In this document: positions 1 to 8,544 of the stretch, piece by piece | Position numbering within the stretch: the stretch's first letter is position 1 | Layout: each line of letters begins with the position of its first letter | DNA from: Erysipelotrichaceae bacterium | Lineage (GTDB): Bacteria; Bacillota_I; Bacilli_A; Erysipelotrichales; Erysipelotrichaceae | DNA: 41,278 nucleotides | Assembly: GCA_030523555.1 (NCBI GenBank) | Contig: JAUNIH010000008.1 | Location: 1 to 41,278 of the forward strand | Direction: 5' to 3' | Made by a program: the position numbers and the translations under genes | The notes under the pieces: generated by a model | Seen by the model: the letters and a program-made list of their open reading frames with translations, nothing else | Database searches by the model: none | Told to the model about the DNA's origin: nothing

Positions 1-57
1 AAGTGACATTGCCTTAATGTAAAAAATCAATTTGAATGTACTAATTTGGATATCTGT

Positions 58-549
58 TTATTTTTTCTCAAACATAGTTTCAATACTGTCCGGACTATCC
101 GCAAAATCGTTATCAATCATCGCTCGAATAAACCCATAAATCATATATGCAGTGCCGTAAAGGAAATAACGCATAGGTCCTTCCGCATCCAGAGGGATGA
201 TAACGCGCTTGAAAAGAGATTCTACCAGGTAGAGCTGATGATGCTTCTTTAATGCCCGTATGAAGTCACGGTGTTCATAAAAGAAACGAATCAGATGAGC
301 GTTGATCTTGTCCTGTGGGCCGTTCTCTACATCATGTTCCCGGGAATATTCCGCCCATCTGAGAACCATATAATAGATCAGCACATCGTCCATGGTTTCG
401 AAGTTTCGATAGAAGGCATTGCGTGACACACCGGCTGTGGCGCACACACCGGTGACGGAGAGTGCATTTGGGGATTTCATCAGTTCAGCGGCCGCGACGG
501 CAATGCTTTCCTTGGAAATAAGACTGATTTCGGCGTTGTTTGGATTCAT
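58..549 (-). CDS. TetR/AcrR-family transcriptional repressor
   Basis: A 163-residue protein with an N-terminal TetR-type helix-turn-helix at about residues 10-55 (motif VCATAGVSRNAFYRNFETMD) and a short helical ligand-binding domain. The start at 549 is supported by GGAGGTCT just upstream on the minus strand. It is divergent from the alpha/beta hydrolase at 676, and the shared intergenic region carries repeated AGACGTAACA sites, so it probably represses itself and the hydrolase. The ligand cannot be read from sequence. At 163 residues it is a little short for the family, but it ends on a proper stop inside the window. Confidence 0.88.
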   Translation of the reverse strand: MNPNNAEISLISKESIAVAAAELMKSPNALSVTGVCATAGVSRNAFYRNFETMDDVLIYYMVLRWAEYSREHDVENGPQDKINAHLIRFFYEHRDFIRALKKHHQLYLVESLFKRVIIPLDAEGPMRYFLYGTAYMIYGFIRAMIDNDFADSPDSIETMFEKK

Positions 550-558
550 AAGACCTCC

Positions 559-638
559 AGACGTAACAATTTGACGATGATTGTGACTTTATCAAACGTC
601 GCTTTACGGGTATATTATAAGACGTAACATCTGTCACG
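559..638. promoter_or_regulatory. Divergent promoter with probable TetR operators
   Basis: AGACGTAACA occurs twice, at 559-568 and 620-629. The second copy forms an inverted repeat, CGTAACA (623-629) with TGTCACG (632-638, one mismatch). The first faces TTGTGAC at 581-587. A TATATT box lies at 611-616, directly before the second site, so a repressor bound there would block transcription towards the hydrolase. Assignment to the neighbouring TetR protein is inference. Confidence 0.55.
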
Positions 639-675
639 GCAAGGGAAATCTAGACGTGGCAGGAAAGGAAAAAAT

Positions 676-1653
676 ATGAAAATTGGTAAGCTTATCAAAA
701 AGGTGCTGCTCGTTATCTGTGTGCTGGTTCTCCTGGTCATGGTACTCATTGGCGGCCTATTCCTGTTCGCTGCTTATAAGAACGATCATTATTACAACTT
801 CTCTTCGGCAGCCGGAAAGATTGAAAAAGAATACGCAACCTTGGGATCTGCGGATACAATGCTTTTGGAATACGATGCAGAGGATGAGATTATTGGTAAG
901 TATCGGATATGGTACCCGAAGGAACTGATTAATACAGATATGTCATATCCTCTTGTCATAATAGTAAACGGAACGGGGACACCCTCTTCTATGATTGATG
1001 GTGTGATGAAACATTTAGCATCCTGGGGATTCATTGTGGCAGGAAATGAGGATGAAAATTCCAGAACGGGTGCCTCTTCAGAATCAACCCTGGTATTTCT
1101 TATGTCTTTGAACGAGGACCCGGAATCGGTTTTTTACCATAGGATCGATACAGAGCATGTCGGTATCACCGGTCATTCGCAGGGTGGAGTGGGGGCCTTT
1201 AACGCTGTTACTGCTCAGGAGCACGGCTCCGTGTATTCGGCAATCTGGTCCATTAGTCCGACCTCACCTTATTGGGGGCAGGAAAATGTTTTCGGTAAAG
1301 AGTGGGCGTATGACCTCAGTGAGCTGACGATTCCCTGCGCCATGGTGGCGGGTACCGGTGCTTTTGACAGCGGAGAGGCAGAAGATATTACTCCAACTTC
1401 CGGTCAGGGAATATGTCCGCTTTGGGCTTTGGATATGAATTATAATGCGATTTCCGACAGTGTACCAAAACTGATCGGCCGACTCACAGACAAGGATCAC
1501 GGGGATACCCTTCGTGATTCCGACGGATACATGACGGCCTGGTTTTGCTACTGGCTGAAGGGAGATGAAGAGGCAGGCAAGGCATTCTTTGGAGAAAGCC
1601 CGGAAATGGCGGACAACTCTTCCTGGCAAGATGTCAGAATTTGCATTAAATAG
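676..1653 (+). CDS. Membrane-anchored alpha/beta hydrolase (chlorophyllase/dienelactone hydrolase-like)
   Basis: A 325-residue protein with one N-terminal membrane helix (about residues 8-33) and an extracytoplasmic alpha/beta hydrolase domain. Visible elements are an oxyanion-side motif VNGTGTPSS (98-106), the nucleophile elbow GHSQGG with Ser168, and a late His in DKDHGD, consistent with a Ser-Asp-His triad. AGGAAAGGAAAAA precedes the ATG. The substrate is unknown; relatives cleave esters or act as lipase/chlorophyllase-type enzymes. It is paired with the divergent TetR gene. Codons such as GGC, CTG and ACC are more frequent than in downstream genes, which suggests recent transfer. Fold assignment is firm, specific activity is not. 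Confidence 0.85.
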   Translation: MKIGKLIKKVLLVICVLVLLVMVLIGGLFLFAAYKNDHYYNFSSAAGKIEKEYATLGSADTMLLEYDAEDEIIGKYRIWYPKELINTDMSYPLVIIVNGTGTPSSMIDGVMKHLASWGFIVAGNEDENSRTGASSESTLVFLMSLNEDPESVFYHRIDTEHVGITGHSQGGVGAFNAVTAQEHGSVYSAIWSISPTSPYWGQENVFGKEWAYDLSELTIPCAMVAGTGAFDSGEAEDITPTSGQGICPLWALDMNYNAISDSVPKLIGRLTDKDHGDTLRDSDGYMTAWFCYWLKGDEEAGKAFFGESPEMADNSSWQDVRICIK

Positions 1654-1661
1654 TAAAATCA

Positions 1662-2105
1662 TTGAAACGGGCTATGGATTGGATGTGGAGGAGGAAAGGA
1701 AGTGCTTATAGAACGAAAACAAGTAAAATATCACTACTCTTTGTGCTGTTATTTTTTGCCTTATTGATAATGACCGGTTGCAGCAAAGAAGAATCGAACA
1801 GCACAAATACTATAGCTAATCAAATAACGGAAACTACTCAGGGAACTAAGACAAATGAAGATAAAGAGGACAATGTGAAACTGGAAACCACTACTTACAA
1901 AATTAATGATGTTGAATTTAAGATGATATATGTTCAAGCAGGCACCTTCACCATGGGGTCAAATGATAAGGATGTACGGTTTTCAGAATCACCTGCACAT
2001 CAGGTAACATTAACCAAAGATTACTTGATGAATATCCACCGCACACCCGTGACTTCAGTCATGAGTCAGGTGGATTTATGTAATATTCAGGTAATATCTC
2101 TTTAA
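1662..2105 (+). pseudogene. Truncated SUMF1/formylglycine-enzyme-like lipoprotein
   Basis: The frame has an N-terminal signal with a lipobox (LLIMTGC), a Ser/Thr/Glu-rich linker and the first strand of a FGE-sulfatase (SUMF1) domain, FKMIYVQAGTFTMGS, followed by ESPAHQVTLTKDY. Homology ends at about 2024-2029, where the left end of an IS200/IS605-type element begins. The last 25-27 residues are IS-encoded and meaningless. Intact family members have a domain of over 200 residues, so the C-terminal catalytic part is missing and is not found beyond the IS. The start is uncertain: TTG 1662, ATG 1674 and ATG 1683 are all in frame, and none has a good ribosome site. It is non-functional as a SUMF1 protein. 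Confidence 0.72.
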
Positions 2106-2309
2106 TTAAAGAAAGAAGTTAATCCGATATATAAAACGAAGAATCATTATGGTTCTATATTTAAAGAAACAGAAATGCTTCTTTTTAAATAGGAAATGAG
2201 ACAAAAGACTGAGTACTAGAAAATAATTAATAATATATTGAATTGAATGATTATATTTCAAGTATTGTGCTATAATTATATCAGATACAGAAAGGAGGTC
2301 TGTTGTGTT

Positions 2310-3698
2310 ATGAAGATTTATTCAACCTACAGTGTAAAAATAAAACACTACAATCATATCTTTAAAGATACTGTCACTGTATACCGTAATGCCGTAGATT
2401 TCCTTATAGATGTCTGTATAAATGAATGGGATGATATTGTAAAGATTCAGGGTTCCAATTCAAGACAGAGATATATTGAGACTCTGATACATAAGTCAAA
2501 GAAATATCCAGAACCAAAGTATGACTTTGATATCCATTTCTATAAGATGCCTTCATACCTTCGTAGAGCCGCCATCTCTGAAGCCATAGGCAAGGTATCT
2601 TCCTATAAGAGTAATTATCTCTACTGGGAAGAAAACAGAAACGGCAGAGCACCTGGTATCCCAAAGGCAGGATATATCTATCCTTCTTTATATAAAGACA
2701 ACATGTATGAAGAAACAGGTACATATACGGCAAAGATTAAGGTATATATCCGCAATACATGGGACTGGATATCAGTAGACTTGCGCAAGTCAGATATCGA
2801 TTACATCAATCGTCACTGCAGTACAAGAAAGAAGTGTGTACCGGTTCTTCGAAAAAGAGGGAAGGAATGGTTTCTGGACTTTCCTTTTGAAGAGGATACG
2901 AAACTGTATACCGTACCTGTTAATGAAAAGACTCTCATAGCAGTAGATCTTGGTATCAACTGTGCAGCTACAATAAGCGTTATGAAATCAGACGGCACTA
3001 TCCTGGGAAGACATTTCTGTCATCTTGATAAGGAATTAGACCATCTGAGTCACAGTACTAACAGAATAAAGAAGGCACAGCAGCACGGAAACAGAAAGAC
3101 TCCTAGACTATGGGCTAAGGCAAAGGGTATTAACCATGACATTTCTTGTAAGACAGCCAATTTTATTATGGATGTTGCCGTTTTGTACAACGCAGATGTC
3201 ATAGTCTTTGAACATCTTGAGAAAAAAGGAAAAGTCAGGGGATCAAAGAAACAGAAACTAAAACTCTGGAGAAGTCAGGAAGTACAGGCTATGGTTGTAG
3301 ACAAGGCACACCGACTTGGCAAACACGTTTGTCATATCAATGCCTGGGGTACTTCAAGACTGGCCTATGACGGCAGCGGTTATGTTACCCGTGGTATAGA
3401 CAGTAACTATAGTATCTGTCAGTTTACAAACGGTAAAGTATACAACTGTGATCTTAGTGCATCATACAATATCGGAGCACGGTATTTTATCCGTGAGATA
3501 CTTAAATCCCTGGATGAGAGTTCAGGGTTGCAGGTTCAGGCAGAAGTTCCTGAACTTAGTAAGAGAAGCACCTGCACATTCTCTACGCTGATTAGTTTAA
3601 ATGCGGCACTGTCTTTCAAAAAGAAGATGGCTCAGCTGAGTTTAAACCGTATCGTAGAAATGCAATCCGCCCGTCTAAAACAGGCAGGTGTCGCATGA
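2310..3698 (+). CDS. tnpB: TnpB RNA-guided endonuclease (IS200/IS605 family)
   Basis: A 462-residue TnpB, a transposon-encoded RNA-guided DNA nuclease related to the ancestor of Cas12. The RuvC-like catalytic residues are in place: Asp213 in AVDLGIN, Glu301 in IVFEHLEKKG and Asp381 in NCDLSASYNIGAR. The zinc-ribbon region between RuvC-II and RuvC-III lacks CxxC pairs (it reads TSRLAYDGSGYVTRG), a form seen in a subgroup of clostridial TnpBs. The start at 2310 follows AAAGGAGG; the frame is open further upstream but has no ribosome site there. The C-terminus runs past RuvC-III into the element's right end and overlaps the next reading frame by 11 bp. It looks intact and potentially active. Confidence 0.9.
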   Translation: MKIYSTYSVKIKHYNHIFKDTVTVYRNAVDFLIDVCINEWDDIVKIQGSNSRQRYIETLIHKSKKYPEPKYDFDIHFYKMPSYLRRAAISEAIGKVSSYKSNYLYWEENRNGRAPGIPKAGYIYPSLYKDNMYEETGTYTAKIKVYIRNTWDWISVDLRKSDIDYINRHCSTRKKCVPVLRKRGKEWFLDFPFEEDTKLYTVPVNEKTLIAVDLGINCAATISVMKSDGTILGRHFCHLDKELDHLSHSTNRIKKAQQHGNRKTPRLWAKAKGINHDISCKTANFIMDVAVLYNADVIVFEHLEKKGKVRGSKKQKLKLWRSQEVQAMVVDKAHRLGKHVCHINAWGTSRLAYDGSGYVTRGIDSNYSICQFTNGKVYNCDLSASYNIGARYFIREILKSLDESSGLQVQAEVPELSKRSTCTFSTLISLNAALSFKKKMAQLSLNRIVEMQSARLKQAGVA

Positions 3699-3741
3699 CA
3701 CCTTACAGGATGCACGTCATTTTAGTGATGTGAGGCTTCAC
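3600..3741 (+). ncRNA. Possible omega RNA (reRNA) scaffold at IS right end
   Basis: In characterised TnpB elements a guide RNA scaffold overlaps the 3' end of tnpB and ends at the element's right terminus, with the guide read from flanking DNA. Here the right end has two stable hairpins (3686-3703, 3713-3732). The guide would start at about 3742, inside the methyltransferase frame. The extent of the RNA is inferred from the family; its 5' end is not visible in sequence. Confidence 0.35.
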
Positions 3742-4398
3742 GAAATTATTGAAGGAAGAAAAAGTATTCCACAGTTAGAGACAGAAAATAAATTCATTAA
3801 TGATATTGTCGATAAAACAGCTGTACTTAAAAGCGGATATCTGATTGATATCGCTACAGGAAGAGGGATGCTGTTAAAAAGGCTGATTGAAAGAGTGGAT
3901 GAAAATGTTCATATTATTTCTGCTGACCTGAGTTTTGCGGTACTTGAATATGACAGACTGAAATTCAAAGAATCGTGCAGATGCAAAGTAAGCTATATTG
4001 CCTGTGATGCAACTGAACTTCCATTAAAAGATGATTGTATAGATATGATATGTACATTTACCGGATATCTTAATATGGGTGAACTGTATGAAGAAGGATT
4101 ATGTGAATCCAGGAGGGTACTTAAAAAGGGAGGATCATTAATAGATTCTCTGATATATATGGATGAAAAGACAAAGGGATATGCTGAAGTAAAAAGAATA
4201 ATGGAAGAAAACGGTATGGGAAAAACGGCTGAATATATCGTACGTGATAAGGTACTTGATCTTCATCAGAGATATTTCAATAAGGTAAAAGATGAAATCA
4301 GTTATGAAGGTATCGGTGAAGAAACAAAGGGAGATCTTCTTCCTTATCCTGGTGAATGGTACGAAAATGCGATAATTGAGGTTATTAAAGATGAGTAA
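3688..4398 (+). CDS. Class I SAM-dependent methyltransferase, N-terminus fused to IS end
   Basis: The frame encodes a Rossmann-type methyltransferase (Methyltransf_11-like). Motif I is YLIDIATGRGMLLKRL, the acidic strand-2 end is IISADLS, and motif IV-like CDATELPLKDDCIDMI is followed by YLNMGELYEEGLCESRRVLKKGG. The substrate is unknown. The only start that keeps motif I is GTG 3688, overlapping tnpB. The first 18 codons lie within the IS right end, so the native N-terminus was probably replaced or lost. From about residue 19 (EIIEGRKSIPQLE) the sequence looks native. Whether the protein is made and folds is uncertain. The stop overlaps the start of the next small membrane protein by 8 bp, showing an original operon. 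Confidence 0.75.
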   Translation: MSHDTLQDARHFSDVRLHEIIEGRKSIPQLETENKFINDIVDKTAVLKSGYLIDIATGRGMLLKRLIERVDENVHIISADLSFAVLEYDRLKFKESCRCKVSYIACDATELPLKDDCIDMICTFTGYLNMGELYEEGLCESRRVLKKGGSLIDSLIYMDEKTKGYAEVKRIMEENGMGKTAEYIVRDKVLDLHQRYFNKVKDEISYEGIGEETKGDLLPYPGEWYENAIIEVIKDE

Positions 4399-4621
4399 AG
4401 AAAAGACAAGAACGATACTTATATTCTCGTGTGTTGTGATGATAATTGTGTTTATAGGTTTATATAATATGCACAGCGAATATCTTTCATGGGATTACAG
4501 TAATCACAGTACGGCAATTCTGGGGACAGCACTTCATATCTTTGAATTTTTGTTTATCAGGATTGCGCCGGTCTGTTTTATTGTGCTGATTATAAGGATA
4601 TTATTCACATTTAAAAAATGA
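4391..4621 (+). CDS. Small membrane protein, unknown function
   Basis: A 76-residue protein with two predicted membrane helices (about residues 7-24 and 45-72) joined by a polar, aromatic loop (HSEYLSWDYSNHS). No family is recognised. ATG 4391 overlaps the methyltransferase stop by 8 bp and is therefore probably translationally coupled; an in-frame TTG at 4376 is less likely. The co-directional overlap suggests it accompanies the methyltransferase, but nothing in the sequence fixes its role. Confidence 0.6.
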   Translation: MSKEKTRTILIFSCVVMIIVFIGLYNMHSEYLSWDYSNHSTAILGTALHIFEFLFIRIAPVCFIVLIIRILFTFKK

Positions 4622-4640
4622 GTAATGTGTGATTACTCAT
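4618..4640. terminator. Bidirectional terminator between convergent genes
   Basis: A perfect 9-bp inverted repeat, ATGAGTAAT (4618-4626) and ATTACTCAT (4632-4640), with a 5-base loop. It overlaps the stop codon of the small membrane protein and lies 8 bp from the end of the convergent TetR gene. An A-run at 4613-4617 gives a U-tract for the minus-strand transcript. Confidence 0.6.
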
Positions 4641-4648
4641 CTATCTTC

Positions 4649-5176
4649 TTATTTTTCAAGAAGTACTGCACATTTATCGGCGAGTTCTTCTGCCGACATA
4701 TTCAGTCTTCCCTCCAGCCAGCGAAGGATGATTAAGGATATGCCTCCGGCAAAGAAGACGGCAGCTACTTTGGAATCAGCTTCAGACTGTTCAGCGAATT
4801 TTTCTTCAATCTTATTTAAGAATATGGAACTGATGATATCGATAATTTCTTTTTCAGGATAATCGAGAAAAAGATGATACATCAGTTCTTTTCTTTCTTT
4901 AAAGTAATTAAGGACAATCAGTATGGCATCTCTTAAAGGCGTTTCTTCGGTGATATGTTTTCTGGAATTGAGGGCTTCCTTTTCTATGCAGAATTTAAGA
5001 AGCTGATATTTGTCTTCAAAGTGTTTATAGAAACCGGAACGGGATATTAAAGCTTCTTCACAGATATCATTGACACTTATCTTCTGAAAGCTTTCTTTCA
5101 TCAGCATCTTTTCAAGGACATCGCAAAGGTGGTTTCTGGTCTGTATTGATTTAGGGGTATTGGCAGTTTTTTCCAT
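4649..5176 (-). CDS. TetR/AcrR-family transcriptional regulator
   Basis: A 175-residue TetR-type regulator. The N-terminal helix-turn-helix spans about residues 14-60 (ISVNDICEEALISRSGFYKH); the C-terminal domain resembles the group in which DhaS-like/TetR_C_7 regulators fall (FLDYPEKEIIDIISSIFL). It is divergent from the coiled-coil/FtsH operon at 5295. The intergenic region contains three GTGCAC/GTGTAC boxes that look like its operator. It probably controls itself and the ftsH operon in response to an unknown ligand. Confidence 0.88.
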   Translation of the reverse strand: MEKTANTPKSIQTRNHLCDVLEKMLMKESFQKISVNDICEEALISRSGFYKHFEDKYQLLKFCIEKEALNSRKHITEETPLRDAILIVLNYFKERKELMYHLFLDYPEKEIIDIISSIFLNKIEEKFAEQSEADSKVAAVFFAGGISLIILRWLEGRLNMSAEELADKCAVLLEK

Positions 5177-5188
5177 AATTTAATTTTA

Positions 5189-5226
5189 GTGCACAAATTG
5201 CTGAAAATGTGCACAAGTGTACACTT
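5189..5226. promoter_or_regulatory. Palindromic GTGCAC operator cluster
   Basis: GTGCAC at 5189-5194, TGTGCACA at 5208-5215 (8-bp palindrome) and AAGTGTACACTT at 5215-5226 (12-bp perfect palindrome) lie just upstream of the TetR start and face the ftsH operon. Spacing between the first and second boxes is 20 bp, about two helical turns. This is a natural binding region for the adjacent TetR protein; the link is inference. Confidence 0.6.
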
Positions 5227-5259
5227 TTGATTTTCTGATTACTCTTTTTAATCTGTTTT

Positions 5260-5276
5260 ACTGAAATAATTTCAGT
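5260..5276 (+). promoter_or_regulatory. Inverted repeat in leader of ftsH operon
   Basis: ACTGAAA (5260-5266) and TTTCAGT (5270-5276) form a perfect 7-bp inverted repeat with a TAA loop, ending 18 bp before the ATG of the first gene and next to its ribosome site (AAAGAAAGGGG). It could be an RNA hairpin affecting translation or a DNA-binding site. The sequence does not decide which. Confidence 0.4.
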
Positions 5277-5294
5277 GGAAAGAAAGGGGTTTAT

Positions 5295-5501
5295 ATGGAT
5301 TCAGATATTAATGAACTTAATGAAGAATTAAGTGAGCTTGAAGAAAAGCTTAATGAGAAATATCAGACACTTGGTAAGGAAGTGCTTGATCTTGTGATGC
5401 GTGAAGATCGGGAGATTGAGATGCTGGTAGACAGGATTATTGATATCAAAAGAAATATAGCTTTAAGAAAGAATATTAAAGGAGGAAAAGAAGATGAATG
5501 A
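5295..5501 (+). CDS. Small acidic coiled-coil protein
   Basis: A 68-residue, highly charged protein that should be almost entirely helical. Residues 1-25 have heptad-like Leu/Glu spacing ([18 protein letters not shown]), typical of a short coiled coil. No family is recognised. A good ribosome site (AAAGGGG) precedes the ATG, and the end overlaps the ftsH start by 8 bp, so the two are translationally coupled. Its position directly before ftsH suggests an adaptor, inhibitor or marker of the same membrane-stress response. This is inference only. Confidence 0.7.
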
Positions 5502-7301
5502 AAAACCAAAGAAGACATTACTGAATTATTATCTTTCAGTGCTGTTTATGATTCTGCTGTTTAATGCTGTAATGCTGCCATGGTTTAATGCCAGCAGGAT
5601 AGTGGAAACCGATTATGGTACTTTCATGAATATGATTGAAGAAAAAGAAATAGGACAGGTAGAGATACAGAGTAATCAGATACTGTTTACCAATGCGGAT
5701 AACAGTGTGACCTATAAGACAGGACTGATTGATGATCCGACATTGACGGAAAGATTATATGATGCGGGTGCGAAGTTTTCCGGTGAGATTGTGGAATCTT
5801 CTTCACCTCTTACAAGTATTTTTCTTTACTGGATATTACCTATGCTGATCTTTTCGGGAATCGGAAACATGATGTCAAGGAAGACGAAGAATGGACCTGC
5901 TGGCAATGTCATGCAGTTTGGCATGGGCAAAAGTAATGCCAAGGTCTATGTACAGTCAGCTGAAGGAATTCATTTTGCGGATGTGGCTGGTGAAGAAGAG
6001 GCTAAAGAAAATCTGAAGGAGATTGTAGAATATCTGCACAATCCTGATAAATATAAGGAAATAGGTGCTTCAATGCCTAAAGGTGTACTGCTTGTTGGTC
6101 CTCCAGGAACCGGTAAGACGATGCTGGCGAAAGCCGTGGCAGGCGAAGCCAACGTACCGTTCTTCTCAATTTCGGGTTCAGAATTTGTCGAGATGTTTGT
6201 GGGTATGGGTGCTTCTAAAGTCAGAGATCTTTTTAAACAGGCCAAAGAGAAAGCCCCTTGTATTGTCTTTATTGATGAGATTGATGCGATCGGTAAAAAC
6301 GTGATTCAAGAATCGGCGGTAATGATGAAAGAGAACAGACCCTTAATCAGTTACTGACAGAGATGGATGGTTTTGAAGGTAATAACGGTGTCATTATTTT
6401 AGCCGCTACCAATAGACCGGAATCATTGGATCCAGCCCTGACAAGACCTGGACGCTTTGACCGTCGTGTACCGGTAGAACTTCCTGATTTAAAGGGTAGA
6501 GAAGATATTCTCAAAGTTCATGCCAAGAAGGTTAAACACGATGACAATATCGATTTTACGCATATTGCCCGTATGGCATCTGGTGCATCCGGGGCAGAAC
6601 TCGCCAATATCGTAAATGAGGCGGCTTTAAGGGCAATCCGTAATAACCGTAACAGTGTTACTCAGGAAGATCTTGAAGAAAGTATTGAAGTTGTCATTGC
6701 CGGCTATCAGAAAAAGAACGCCATCATGTCTGATGAAGAAAAGAAAATTGTGGCCTACCACGAGACTGGACATGCGCTTGTTGCGGCATTACAGACACAC
6801 TCCGCACCGGTATCTAAGATCACTATTATCCCACGTACTTCTGGAGCCTTGGGTTATACGATGCAGGTCGAAGAAGGAAATCATTATCTTATGAGTAAGA
6901 CTGAGATGGAAAACAAGATTTCGACTTTGACCGGAGGAAGAGCTGCTGAAGAACTCGTCTTTGGTTCAGTTACGACCGGTGCTTCAAATGATATAGAACA
7001 GGCAACAAGATATGCCAGAGCAATGGTCACAAGATACGGCATGTCTGATGACTTTGATATGGTAGCGATGGAAACTGTCAATTCCCAGTATCTTGGGGAT
7101 GATGCGTCCTTATCGTGTTCACCAGAAACCCAGACCCTGATTGATAAAAAGGTCGTTGAACTTGTAAAGAAGCAGCACGAAAAAGCCTTTAATCTTTTAA
7201 AGGATAATAAGAAGAAACTTGATGAAATTGCGGAATATCTTTATGAAAAAGAAACTATTACAGGTGAAGAGTTTATGAAGATGTTAAATGAAGGAGAATA
7301 A
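5494..7301 (+). pseudogene. ftsH: FtsH ATP-dependent zinc metalloprotease, frameshifted
   Basis: Two adjacent frames together make a full FtsH of about 602 residues. The first (5494-6357) has two membrane helices (about 10-30 and 106-124), Walker A GPPGTGKT (202-209) and Walker B IVFIDEID (257-264). The second resumes by 6363 with the SRH region [20 protein letters not shown], then zinc-site HETGH and the conserved protease C-terminus. The break lies in a run of five A (6295-6299): restoring a sixth A gives [20 protein letters not shown], the family consensus. This is therefore a one-base deletion, a sequencing slip, or a site needing -1 frameshifting. FtsH degrades membrane and unstable cytosolic proteins; this copy sits in an accessory operon, so the cell may carry another. 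Confidence 0.85.
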
Positions 7302-7302
7302 G

Positions 7303-7839
7303 ATGAACAGAAAAGAATCATTCAACTGGATGGAATTTATGGCAGGGGTAATATGTGTTATTGTCGGTATCTATACCCTGTCTCATCCCAAGGCTGCCTT
7401 AAGCAGTTTTGCGGTAGTATATGGAATTATGGCGGTAATTAATGGAATTTCCGATATGGCGTTTTATATGCAGCTAGAAAGAAGTACTGGTTTTGGTCCG
7501 ATGCTGTCGATGATATCCGGTATTGTCAATATCATGCTGGGAATTGTACTGATCATGTTTAATAATATAACTGTAAGAATGATGTCCATTATCTTCCCGG
7601 TATGGTTTATTATCCATTGTCTTGGAAGAATGCTGAATCTTAATTTCATTAAACTTACGGAAGGCAATAAACAGTTCTATATCAGTATGGCAGTATGTAT
7701 TGCGGGTATTGTTATAGGTGTAGCGATGCTGTTTCATCCTTTCGGTACAGAAAAACTTATCGGCGCTCTTGCAGGAATATATCTCTTGCTTGTTGGTATC
7801 GGTAAACTGCTGATGGTCTTTGGACAAAAAGAAGGATAA
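7303..7839 (+). CDS. HdeD/DUF308-family membrane protein
   Basis: A 178-residue protein with about six membrane helices arranged as three hairpins, with the repeated features of the HdeD/DUF308 family (AGVICVIVGIYTLSHPKAALSS; later CIAGIVIGVAMLFHPFGTEK). In enterobacteria HdeD is linked to acid and membrane stress; the biochemical role is unknown. Start ATG 7303 follows AAGGAG at 7291-7296, inside the end of ftsH; an in-frame ATG at 7288 lacks a site. It lies 1 bp after the ftsH stop, so it is in the same operon. Confidence 0.82.
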   Translation: MNRKESFNWMEFMAGVICVIVGIYTLSHPKAALSSFAVVYGIMAVINGISDMAFYMQLERSTGFGPMLSMISGIVNIMLGIVLIMFNNITVRMMSIIFPVWFIIHCLGRMLNLNFIKLTEGNKQFYISMAVCIAGIVIGVAMLFHPFGTEKLIGALAGIYLLLVGIGKLLMVFGQKEG

Positions 7840-7872
7840 AGATGAGAGCGTTATTTATTCAGGGAGATTAAG

Positions 7873-8544
7873 ATGGATACTGAAAAAAAGACAGCGCCTT
7901 CCATACAGAGTTCTTTAAGGGGGCATATTCTGAGACTTCCAGAAGAAGTATATGACGCCAGCGGAATCGTCATTAACGGAAGAAGACTTAAATCTTTCGT
8001 ATTTACGACAGATCTGGCAATTATCAGAAACTGTGATGCAGATGCGGTCTTTGCGGTTTACCCGTTTACACCGCAGCCTGTCATCAGTGAGCATATTTTA
8101 GAGGCTTCGTATATTCCGGTATTCTGCGGAATCGGCGGTGGAACTACGAAGGGTCTAAGAACCGTGGGACTTGCCAAAGATGCCGAAGCACGGGGTGCGA
8201 TGGGTGTTGTATTAAATGCCCCTATCAGTAATCTTAACCTGATTGGCGTAGCCAAAGCTGTTGATATTCCTGTGGTCATAACGATTGCCAGTGAAGATAC
8301 TGATATTTCAGAACGTATTGCCGCAGGCGCATCGATTCTGAATGTCGCCTGTGCTGCAGATACTCCAAAGGTAATTTCGAAAATCCGTGCTGCTTATCCG
8401 GATATTCCCATCATCGCAAGCGGTGGTAAAACCGGGGAAAGCATCAAACGCACAATTGATGCCGGTGCCAACGCAATCGTATATACCCCACCTTCAACTG
8501 CAGAACTGTTTAAAACGCTTATGGCTAAATACCGTGAGGACTAA
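7873..8544 (+). CDS. TIM-barrel enzyme, family often annotated as hydrolase
   Basis: A 223-residue protein with a TIM-barrel pattern: alternating strands ending in GIGGGTTKGLR, MGVVLNAPISN, IPVVITIAS, ILNVACAADT, IPIIASGGKTGESIKRTIDAGANAIVYTPP. The late GGKTG and GANAI/YTPP segments resemble the phosphate-binding ends of barrels such as aldolases and thiazole synthase-like enzymes. It belongs to a conserved Bacillota family of unknown reaction. GGGAG precedes ATG 7873. It is the last gene of the ftsH-hdeD operon, 33 bp downstream of hdeD. The fold is fairly sure, the activity unknown. Confidence 0.7.
   Translation: MDTEKKTAPSIQSSLRGHILRLPEEVYDASGIVINGRRLKSFVFTTDLAIIRNCDADAVFAVYPFTPQPVISEHILEASYIPVFCGIGGGTTKGLRTVGLAKDAEARGAMGVVLNAPISNLNLIGVAKAVDIPVVITIASEDTDISERIAAGASILNVACAADTPKVISKIRAAYPDIPIIASGGKTGESIKRTIDAGANAIVYTPPSTAELFKTLMAKYRED

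What the first reader, a model, noticed from the sequence alone, without database searches (positions are those of the whole stretch)
2025..3760. tnpB element joins halves of two unrelated genes, creating chimeric reading frames
The left flank is an interrupted SUMF1-type lipoprotein gene and the right flank a methyltransferase frame, not the rest of the SUMF1 gene. The right end of the IS supplies the GTG start and first 18 codons of the methyltransferase frame, overlapping tnpB. A simple insertion cannot explain this; a deletion or recombination next to the IS is needed. The result may be a gene expressed from transposon signals.
Basis: partly seen in the sequence, partly recalled or inferred. 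Interest (0 to 1): 0.55.

Follow-up and report, generated by a model that had tools for sequence, protein, structure and literature searches.

The report
One jumping element, two broken genes
A small mobile DNA element in a bacterium has the front of one gene on its left and the back of an unrelated gene on its right, most likely because two inserted copies recombined into one, although a wrong join in the assembly cannot be excluded; the apparent new gene start is the ordinary end of the element.

Summary
A TnpB-only IS200/IS605-type element occupies 2030-3741, with target TTGAT at 2025-2029 and right end ..GGCTTCAC at 3741. The left flank is the 5' part of a SUMF1-type lipoprotein gene; the right flank is a methyltransferase frame lacking its first ~76-81 codons. 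Joining the flanks restores neither gene, so a simple insertion is not enough.

The two best intact methyltransferase relatives carry Leu-Asp or Phe-Asp where TTGAT is expected, one of them coded with the letters TTGAT; 3 of 288 aligned positions fit this in both. So two canonical insertion sites share one element body. The simplest in-vivo route is recombination between two IS copies with loss of the DNA between. The main rival is an assembly mis-join: a 95-contig draft with a left flank of only 2 kb.

The "GTG start and 18 codons" are the end of the element's RNA scaffold and terminal hairpin. A GTG starting 12 nt before the right end occurs in 49 of 53 relatives checked, so it is a family feature. 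Nothing shows expression. An ordinary kind of event, of modest interest.

The parts
58..549 (-). TetR-type regulator, left flank
   Evidence: ORF; PF00440 E 6.1e-5, 23.2 bits, cut-off 24
676..1653 (+). esterase-like (PETase/chlorophyllase-type) gene, left flank
   Evidence: PF12740 E 1.6e-8; 51% relative in another family of the same order, full or nearly full matches of 36-43% in the same genus
1662..2029 (+). 5' part of a SUMF1/FGE-sulfatase lipoprotein gene, cut at the IS
   Evidence: homologous to the intact C69 paralogue up to VTLTKDY
2025..2029 (+). TTGAT target / transposon-associated motif at the left end
   Evidence: TTGAN within the 16-nt stretch expected in 39 of 47 relatives in which a left end was found
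2030..3741 (+). IS200/IS605-type TnpB-only element
   Evidence: limits from own-genome partial copies and 56 relatives with located right ends
2036..2073 (+). left-end subterminal hairpin region
   Evidence: CGTGACTTYAGTCRYG-type core also found in relatives; limits by eye
2113..2419 (+). 307-bp segment identical to the C45 copy, between diverged ends
2310..3698 (+). tnpB; reads into the scaffold past the stop position of relative L045
   Evidence: the L045 TnpB is 441 aa and stops earlier
3602..3741 (+). right-end RNA scaffold (reRNA/omegaRNA-like) with terminal hairpin
   Evidence: 27 aligned sequences: 21 of 30 predicted pairs have at least one sequence with both sides changed and the pair kept
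3688..3741 (+). GTG and 18 codons supplied by the IS
   Evidence: a second GTG in the same frame at 3730 is the one conserved in 49 of 53 relatives
3742..3757 (+). inferred 16-nt guide, now methyltransferase sequence
   Evidence: inference from ISDra2 (PMC8612924, passages read)
3742..4398 (+). methyltransferase gene lacking its first ~76-81 codons
   Evidence: 52% identity over 212 aa to intact L145, from the third residue after the junction

Best explanation
The locus is a hybrid of two ordinary insertions of one IS200/IS605-type TnpB element, one after TTGAT in a SUMF1-type lipoprotein gene and one after TTGAT in a methyltransferase gene. The two copies, in the same orientation, recombined inside the element. 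One body remained, and the stretch between them, with the 3' part of SUMF1 and the 5' part of the methyltransferase gene, was lost. Shown: both genes are truncated exactly at the element's ends, and the right junction coincides with a TTGAT-compatible site in two intact relatives. Inferred: two earlier copies, direct orientation, loss of the intervening DNA, and that it happened in the cell and not in the assembler. The GTG and 18 codons are the element's structured right end, not a newly evolved start. The catalytic methyltransferase domain is complete and could at most be translated weakly, perhaps by coupling to tnpB. By analogy with ISDra2 the element's guide now matches methyltransferase sequence.
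For: Right ends: located in 56 of 68 relatives, all ending in TTCAC (48 GGCTTCAC, 5 GACTTCAC, 3 GGTTTCAC; the search pattern allowed one mismatch, so this is partly by construction), fixing the window's end at 3741. Left ends: TTGAN in 39 of 47. Intact IS-free methyltransferase relatives: G599 52% (homology from the third residue after the junction) and L042 32% (from about residue 16 by search; aligned to the junction by MAFFT). The residues before the junction are LD in G599 and FD in L042, the latter coded TTTGAT. 3 of 288 aligned columns, this one included, have [FLIV]D in both. The same LD-at-TTGAT pattern occurs in L077, where the joined flanks give one 366-codon frame. No SUMF1 3' part elsewhere in the genome, the intact C69 copy being an internal positive. 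No methyltransferase 5' part found (best E 0.06 at 26%, in a protein that I read as unrelated). Besides the window, one search matched three places on two contigs, none at a contig end. Copies share sequence patchily: a 307-bp identical core with C45 lies between a left end with 7 mismatches and 4 gap positions in 83 nt and a right end with 18% difference.
Against: No strain of the species with either parental insertion or an empty site was found. In G599 the LD is coded TTGGAT, which is not TTGAT. Only one full-length copy exists in the assembly, so the second parental copy is inferred. The identical 307-bp core is also the sort of shared path at which assemblers mis-join. The left flank is only 2 kb and ends at the contig end. 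The search for the methyltransferase 5' part used the N-terminus of a 52% relative, so its power is unproven. Short IS remnants at contig ends could have escaped.
Confidence: 0.52

Rival explanations
1. The contig is a mis-join. Two copies of the IS, in one genome or in co-binned strains, were merged in the assembly, so SUMF1 left of one copy appears beside the methyltransferase right of another. It predicts the same pair of canonical junctions.
For: Draft of 95 contigs; the left flank is 2,029 nt long at a contig end; a 307-bp exact repeat is shared with C45; left-flank GC is at rank 0.96 and right-flank GC at rank 0.10 among 293 own-genome windows.
Against: The other two ends (SUMF1 3', methyltransferase 5') and contig ends inside the IS were not found in a genome estimated 95.5% complete. 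Exchanging partners with C45 restores neither gene, by my reading of its flanks. A TetR relative lies head-to-head with an esterase relative in two same-genus genomes, G006 and G033, as in the left flank; in G022 the pair is tail-to-tail. Tetranucleotide ranks of both flanks are 0.87 and 0.83 of own windows, but flanks of foreign loci often rank alike (25th percentile 0.87), so this does not decide. No N in the window.
Confidence: 0.36
2. One insertion into SUMF1 was followed by a deletion that started at the right end of the IS and happened to stop inside the methyltransferase gene.
For: Explains the loss of both gene parts with a single IS copy; only one full-length copy is present.
Against: The end point would have to fall by chance on a TTGAT-compatible position shared by both intact relatives: 3 of 288 columns. 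The right end is complete to its last base.
Confidence: 0.05
3. The insertion is simple, and the SUMF1-like left reading and the methyltransferase right reading already lay side by side, the fragment having been truncated before the insertion.
For: The flanks joined at TTGAT leave the methyltransferase frame open for 20 codons on the left.
Against: Those 20 codons are out-of-frame SUMF1 and do not resemble the missing methyltransferase N-terminus (NINQRLLD, read, against KEMNYEDLD); the adjacency would also need an earlier, unrelated deletion.
Confidence: 0.05

Closest known systems
ISDra2 (IS200/IS605, Deinococcus radiodurans; PMC8612924, passages read)
   Same: TTGAT at the left end as target and TAM; TnpB; right-end-derived RNA whose guide is the right flank (for the window the guide is inferred)
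   Different: The window copy has no tnpA and its two flanks come from two genes; its TnpB was matched only at family-model level, not compared with ISDra2 directly
   Same: 68% identical TnpB, hairpins of the same kind at both ends
   Different: Carries a Y1 transposase gene (PF01797 E 1.2e-36) and sits in another place
IS-IS recombination with deletion (general knowledge); deletion-born gene fusions, PMC12803068 (abstract and passages read)
   Same: A deletion joins parts of distant genes; [quoted passage not shown]
   Different: Here a whole IS lies between the two parts, so no SUMF1-methyltransferase fusion protein forms

Membership tests
IS200/IS605-type TnpB element | TnpB protein of the RNA-guided nuclease family | tested here: met
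   NF040570 E 9.4e-22 (77.8 bits, under its cut-off of 100); TIGR01766 33.6 bits, cut-off 32; PF01385 E 3.4e-4, under cut-off. D213, E301, D381 are shared with L045; their assignment as RuvC residues is recalled
IS200/IS605-type TnpB element | Insertion 3' of a TTGAT-like target, with subterminal hairpins at both ends | tested here: met
IS200/IS605-type TnpB element | Right-end structured RNA scaffold followed by flank as guide | tested here: met
   Two-sided changes at 21 of 30 pairs; the window's own sequence folds only slightly better than shuffles (z -1.1). The guide itself is inferred
IS200/IS605-type TnpB element | Y1 transposase TnpA in the element | tested here: not met
   No second long ORF besides tnpB on the + strand of 2030-3741, and the minus-strand ORFs of 109 and 61 aa were not taken as genes; TnpA present in relative L045. 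TnpB-only members are a recognised subtype (recalled). TnpA elsewhere in the genome was not searched
IS-IS recombination product | Both junctions are canonical IS ends in two different genes | tested here: met
   Left: TTGAT in SUMF1. Right: complete IS end at a TTGAT-compatible site by comparison with two relatives
IS-IS recombination product | Parental single insertions or reciprocal product in related strains | not testable with these tools
   No same-species genome found; own-genome searches empty
Chimeric gene expressed from transposon signals | Transcript and translated product starting in the IS | not testable with these tools
   Needs RNA-seq or proteomics. The promoter-like count is no higher than in shuffles (10 against mean 12.1)

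The most novel reading that the evidence does not exclude
The rearrangement was driven by TnpB itself. A guided cut at an empty methyltransferase allele was repaired from the SUMF1-resident copy with a template switch inside the element. The resulting hybrid keeps a guide against the intact methyltransferase allele and expresses a zinc-ribbon-less methyltransferase by coupling to a TnpB lengthened into its own scaffold.
Probability: 0.04. Interest if true: 0.55.

Novelty: new member of a known kind. Interest (0 to 1): 0.22.

Why it matters
If real, it is a clean natural example of two TnpB-element insertions fusing into one. It shows how the guide (right flank) and the adjacent motif (left flank) of such an element can come from different genes while the rejoined donor site would still be a target. 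It also warns that outward 'GTG starts' at right ends of this family are built-in and should not be annotated as gene starts.

Tried and rejected
Searches that led nowhere: methyltransferase protein against genome contigs and viral contigs (no relatives); plasmids (four records with partial, generic matches); left-flank DNA against plasmids and window 1-8000 against phages (no match); exact junction patterns in viral contigs (none); left-flank DNA in 315 genomes of the order (short stretches of at most about 100 nt besides the window itself); Rfam on 1900-4000 (one match far under its gathering score, taken as chance). FtsH as a synteny anchor: no match at E 1e-60 in the other 35 same-genus genomes. 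The gyrA-serS spot where G599 keeps its methyltransferase gene has no such gene in the window's genome, so the ancestral place is unknown.

Rejected ideas: exchange of partners with the C45 copy. Its flanks are, by my reading of the translations (names recalled, no family search), the end of an amylase-like gene and an antirepressor-like gene; neither completes SUMF1 or the methyltransferase. Composition as proof of a foreign left flank: not discriminating (one of the fetched stretches, C40, reads as N or withheld letters and was left in the windows). Spanning-frame test over relatives: 3 of 31 against 96 of 930 mismatched controls, so no enrichment; I take only L077 as a convincing interrupted gene. 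Frame bias of outward ORFs: 9, 3 and 2 of 53 flanks at 80 codons or more in the three frames, one-sided P 0.017 against 1/3 each; it should weaken if the frame that puts TGA in the target is left out (not computed). My first right-end list (used again) mislocated five right ends (L067, L094, L102, L103, L108) and missed L100 and L109; replace those counts. The left-end count (39 of 47) is still; its 8 misses are L058, L072, L073, L076, L079, L101, L107, L110. Dropped rows: 12 of 68 loci without the TnpB 3' motif, then 2 short flanks and 1 duplicate of 56, 25 of 56 loci, listed there. Alignment A4 holds the window and 26 of 56 relatives, chosen by me for spread.

Full report
What is there. The window is the whole of contig C71 of a 1.79-Mb draft genome in 95 contigs. 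Positions 2310-3698 encode a TnpB. The element has no tnpA of its own, while a 68% relative in G043 has a Y1 transposase next to its tnpB.

Limits of the element. Two partial copies in the same genome, C45 (internally deleted) and C18 (left end only), and 68 related loci (66 from named genomes, 2 from viral contigs) fix the ends. The right end was located in 56 of 68 loci and ends in TTCAC in all 56, with a pattern that allowed one mismatch; so the window's right end is 3741. A left end was found in 47 loci, with TTGAT (23), TTGAA (13) or TTGAC (3) in place in 39. The window has TTGAT at 2025-2029, so the element is 2030-3741.

Left gene. The frame 1662-2029 encodes what looks like a lipoprotein signal (by eye) and the start of a SUMF1/FGE-sulfatase domain. 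It matches an intact paralogue on contig C69 up to VTLTKDY (E 8e-22). The rest of the domain is not to the right of the element. A family search of the whole genome finds only C69 and this fragment. A divergent TetR-esterase pair like the one further left occurs in two same-genus genomes.

Right gene. In 3742-4398 the methyltransferase domain is present. In 392 genomes of the phylum one other genome matched at E 1e-8 or better (L042, 32%); in 315 genomes of the order two did at 1e-7 (G599, 52% over 212 aa, and a weak one, 25%). G599 and L042 have no IS in the gene and 76-81 further N-terminal residues (G599 81 from its TTG or 76 from the ATG, L042 77), with a CPxC zinc-ribbon-like start. For G599, homology begins at the third residue after the IS junction. 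The residues just before the junction are LD in G599, coded TTGGAT, and FD in L042, coded TTTGAT. Because the frame requires xTT GAT before the junction, [FLIV]D is what an insertion after TTGAT predicts; 3 of 288 aligned columns carry such a pair in both relatives. So the right end too most likely sits at a canonical site.

How it arose. One element body with two canonical sites in two genes is what recombination between two copies leaves. Deletion between direct copies also accounts for the missing 3' and 5' gene parts. Copies in this genome do share sequence patchily: window 2113-2419 is identical to C45 over 307 bp while both ends differ. The same pattern can mislead an assembler, and the left flank is short, so a mis-join stays the main rival. 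Base composition does not decide.

The chimeric frame. This stretch is part of a covarying RNA structure in 27 aligned right ends; the window's own copy folds only slightly better than shuffles (z -1.1). A GTG starting 12 nt before the right end, in one fixed frame to the flank, is found in 49 of 53 relatives; in the window this is the GTG at 3730. In L077, where the joined flanks give one 366-codon frame and the insertion looks simple, the outward frame runs 296 codons. The chimeric reading frame is therefore an expected by-product of insertion, not a creation at this locus. tnpB in the window lacks the stop that ends the 441-aa TnpB of L045 and reads on into the scaffold, which makes the overlap with the methyltransferase frame.

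Function. In ISDra2, TnpB uses a right-end RNA with about 16 nt of flank as guide and cuts next to TTGAT (PMC8612924, passages read). By analogy the guide here would be methyltransferase sequence, and either the rejoined donor or an intact methyltransferase allele with TTGAT would be a target. This is inference.

Standing. Related prior work: deletion-born fusions (PMC12803068, abstract and passages) and TnpB as retention or drive device (PMC11870625, passages). I searched papers and saw no report of this locus in the listings, but those searches were not aimed at the locus itself. Overall an ordinary kind of event, well delimited, with assembly error not excluded.

Noticed in passing
window 5494-7301: An FtsH-type protease gene (FtsH_fam E 1.9e-85 for the first frame) is split in two frames: after ..DEIDAIGKN the continuation [25 protein letters not shown] lies in another frame. 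Pseudogene or assembly error; no match at E 1e-60 in the other 35 same-genus genomes.
   Followed up: partly
L048:1492-2427 (own genome, around C69:7452-8117, near the end of an 8,468-bp contig): The intact SUMF1-type lipoprotein frame begins with a kinase-like P-loop start (MILRIHIIGCSGSGKTYLASELSEKYN, label by eye) ahead of the lipoprotein signal, perhaps another junction of two genes.
   Followed up: no
own genome C45:5869-6335 (L002): Internally deleted copy of the element that keeps both ends, a possible non-autonomous (MITE-like) derivative; its right-end hairpin differs from the window's by changes that look partly compensatory by eye.
   Followed up: partly
relatives L050-L117, right ends: Long outward ORFs (80 codons or more) fall more often in the frame of the conserved GTG (9) than in the other two frames (3 and 2) among 53 flanks; may only reflect which frames allow TTGAT in a gene.
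   Followed up: partly
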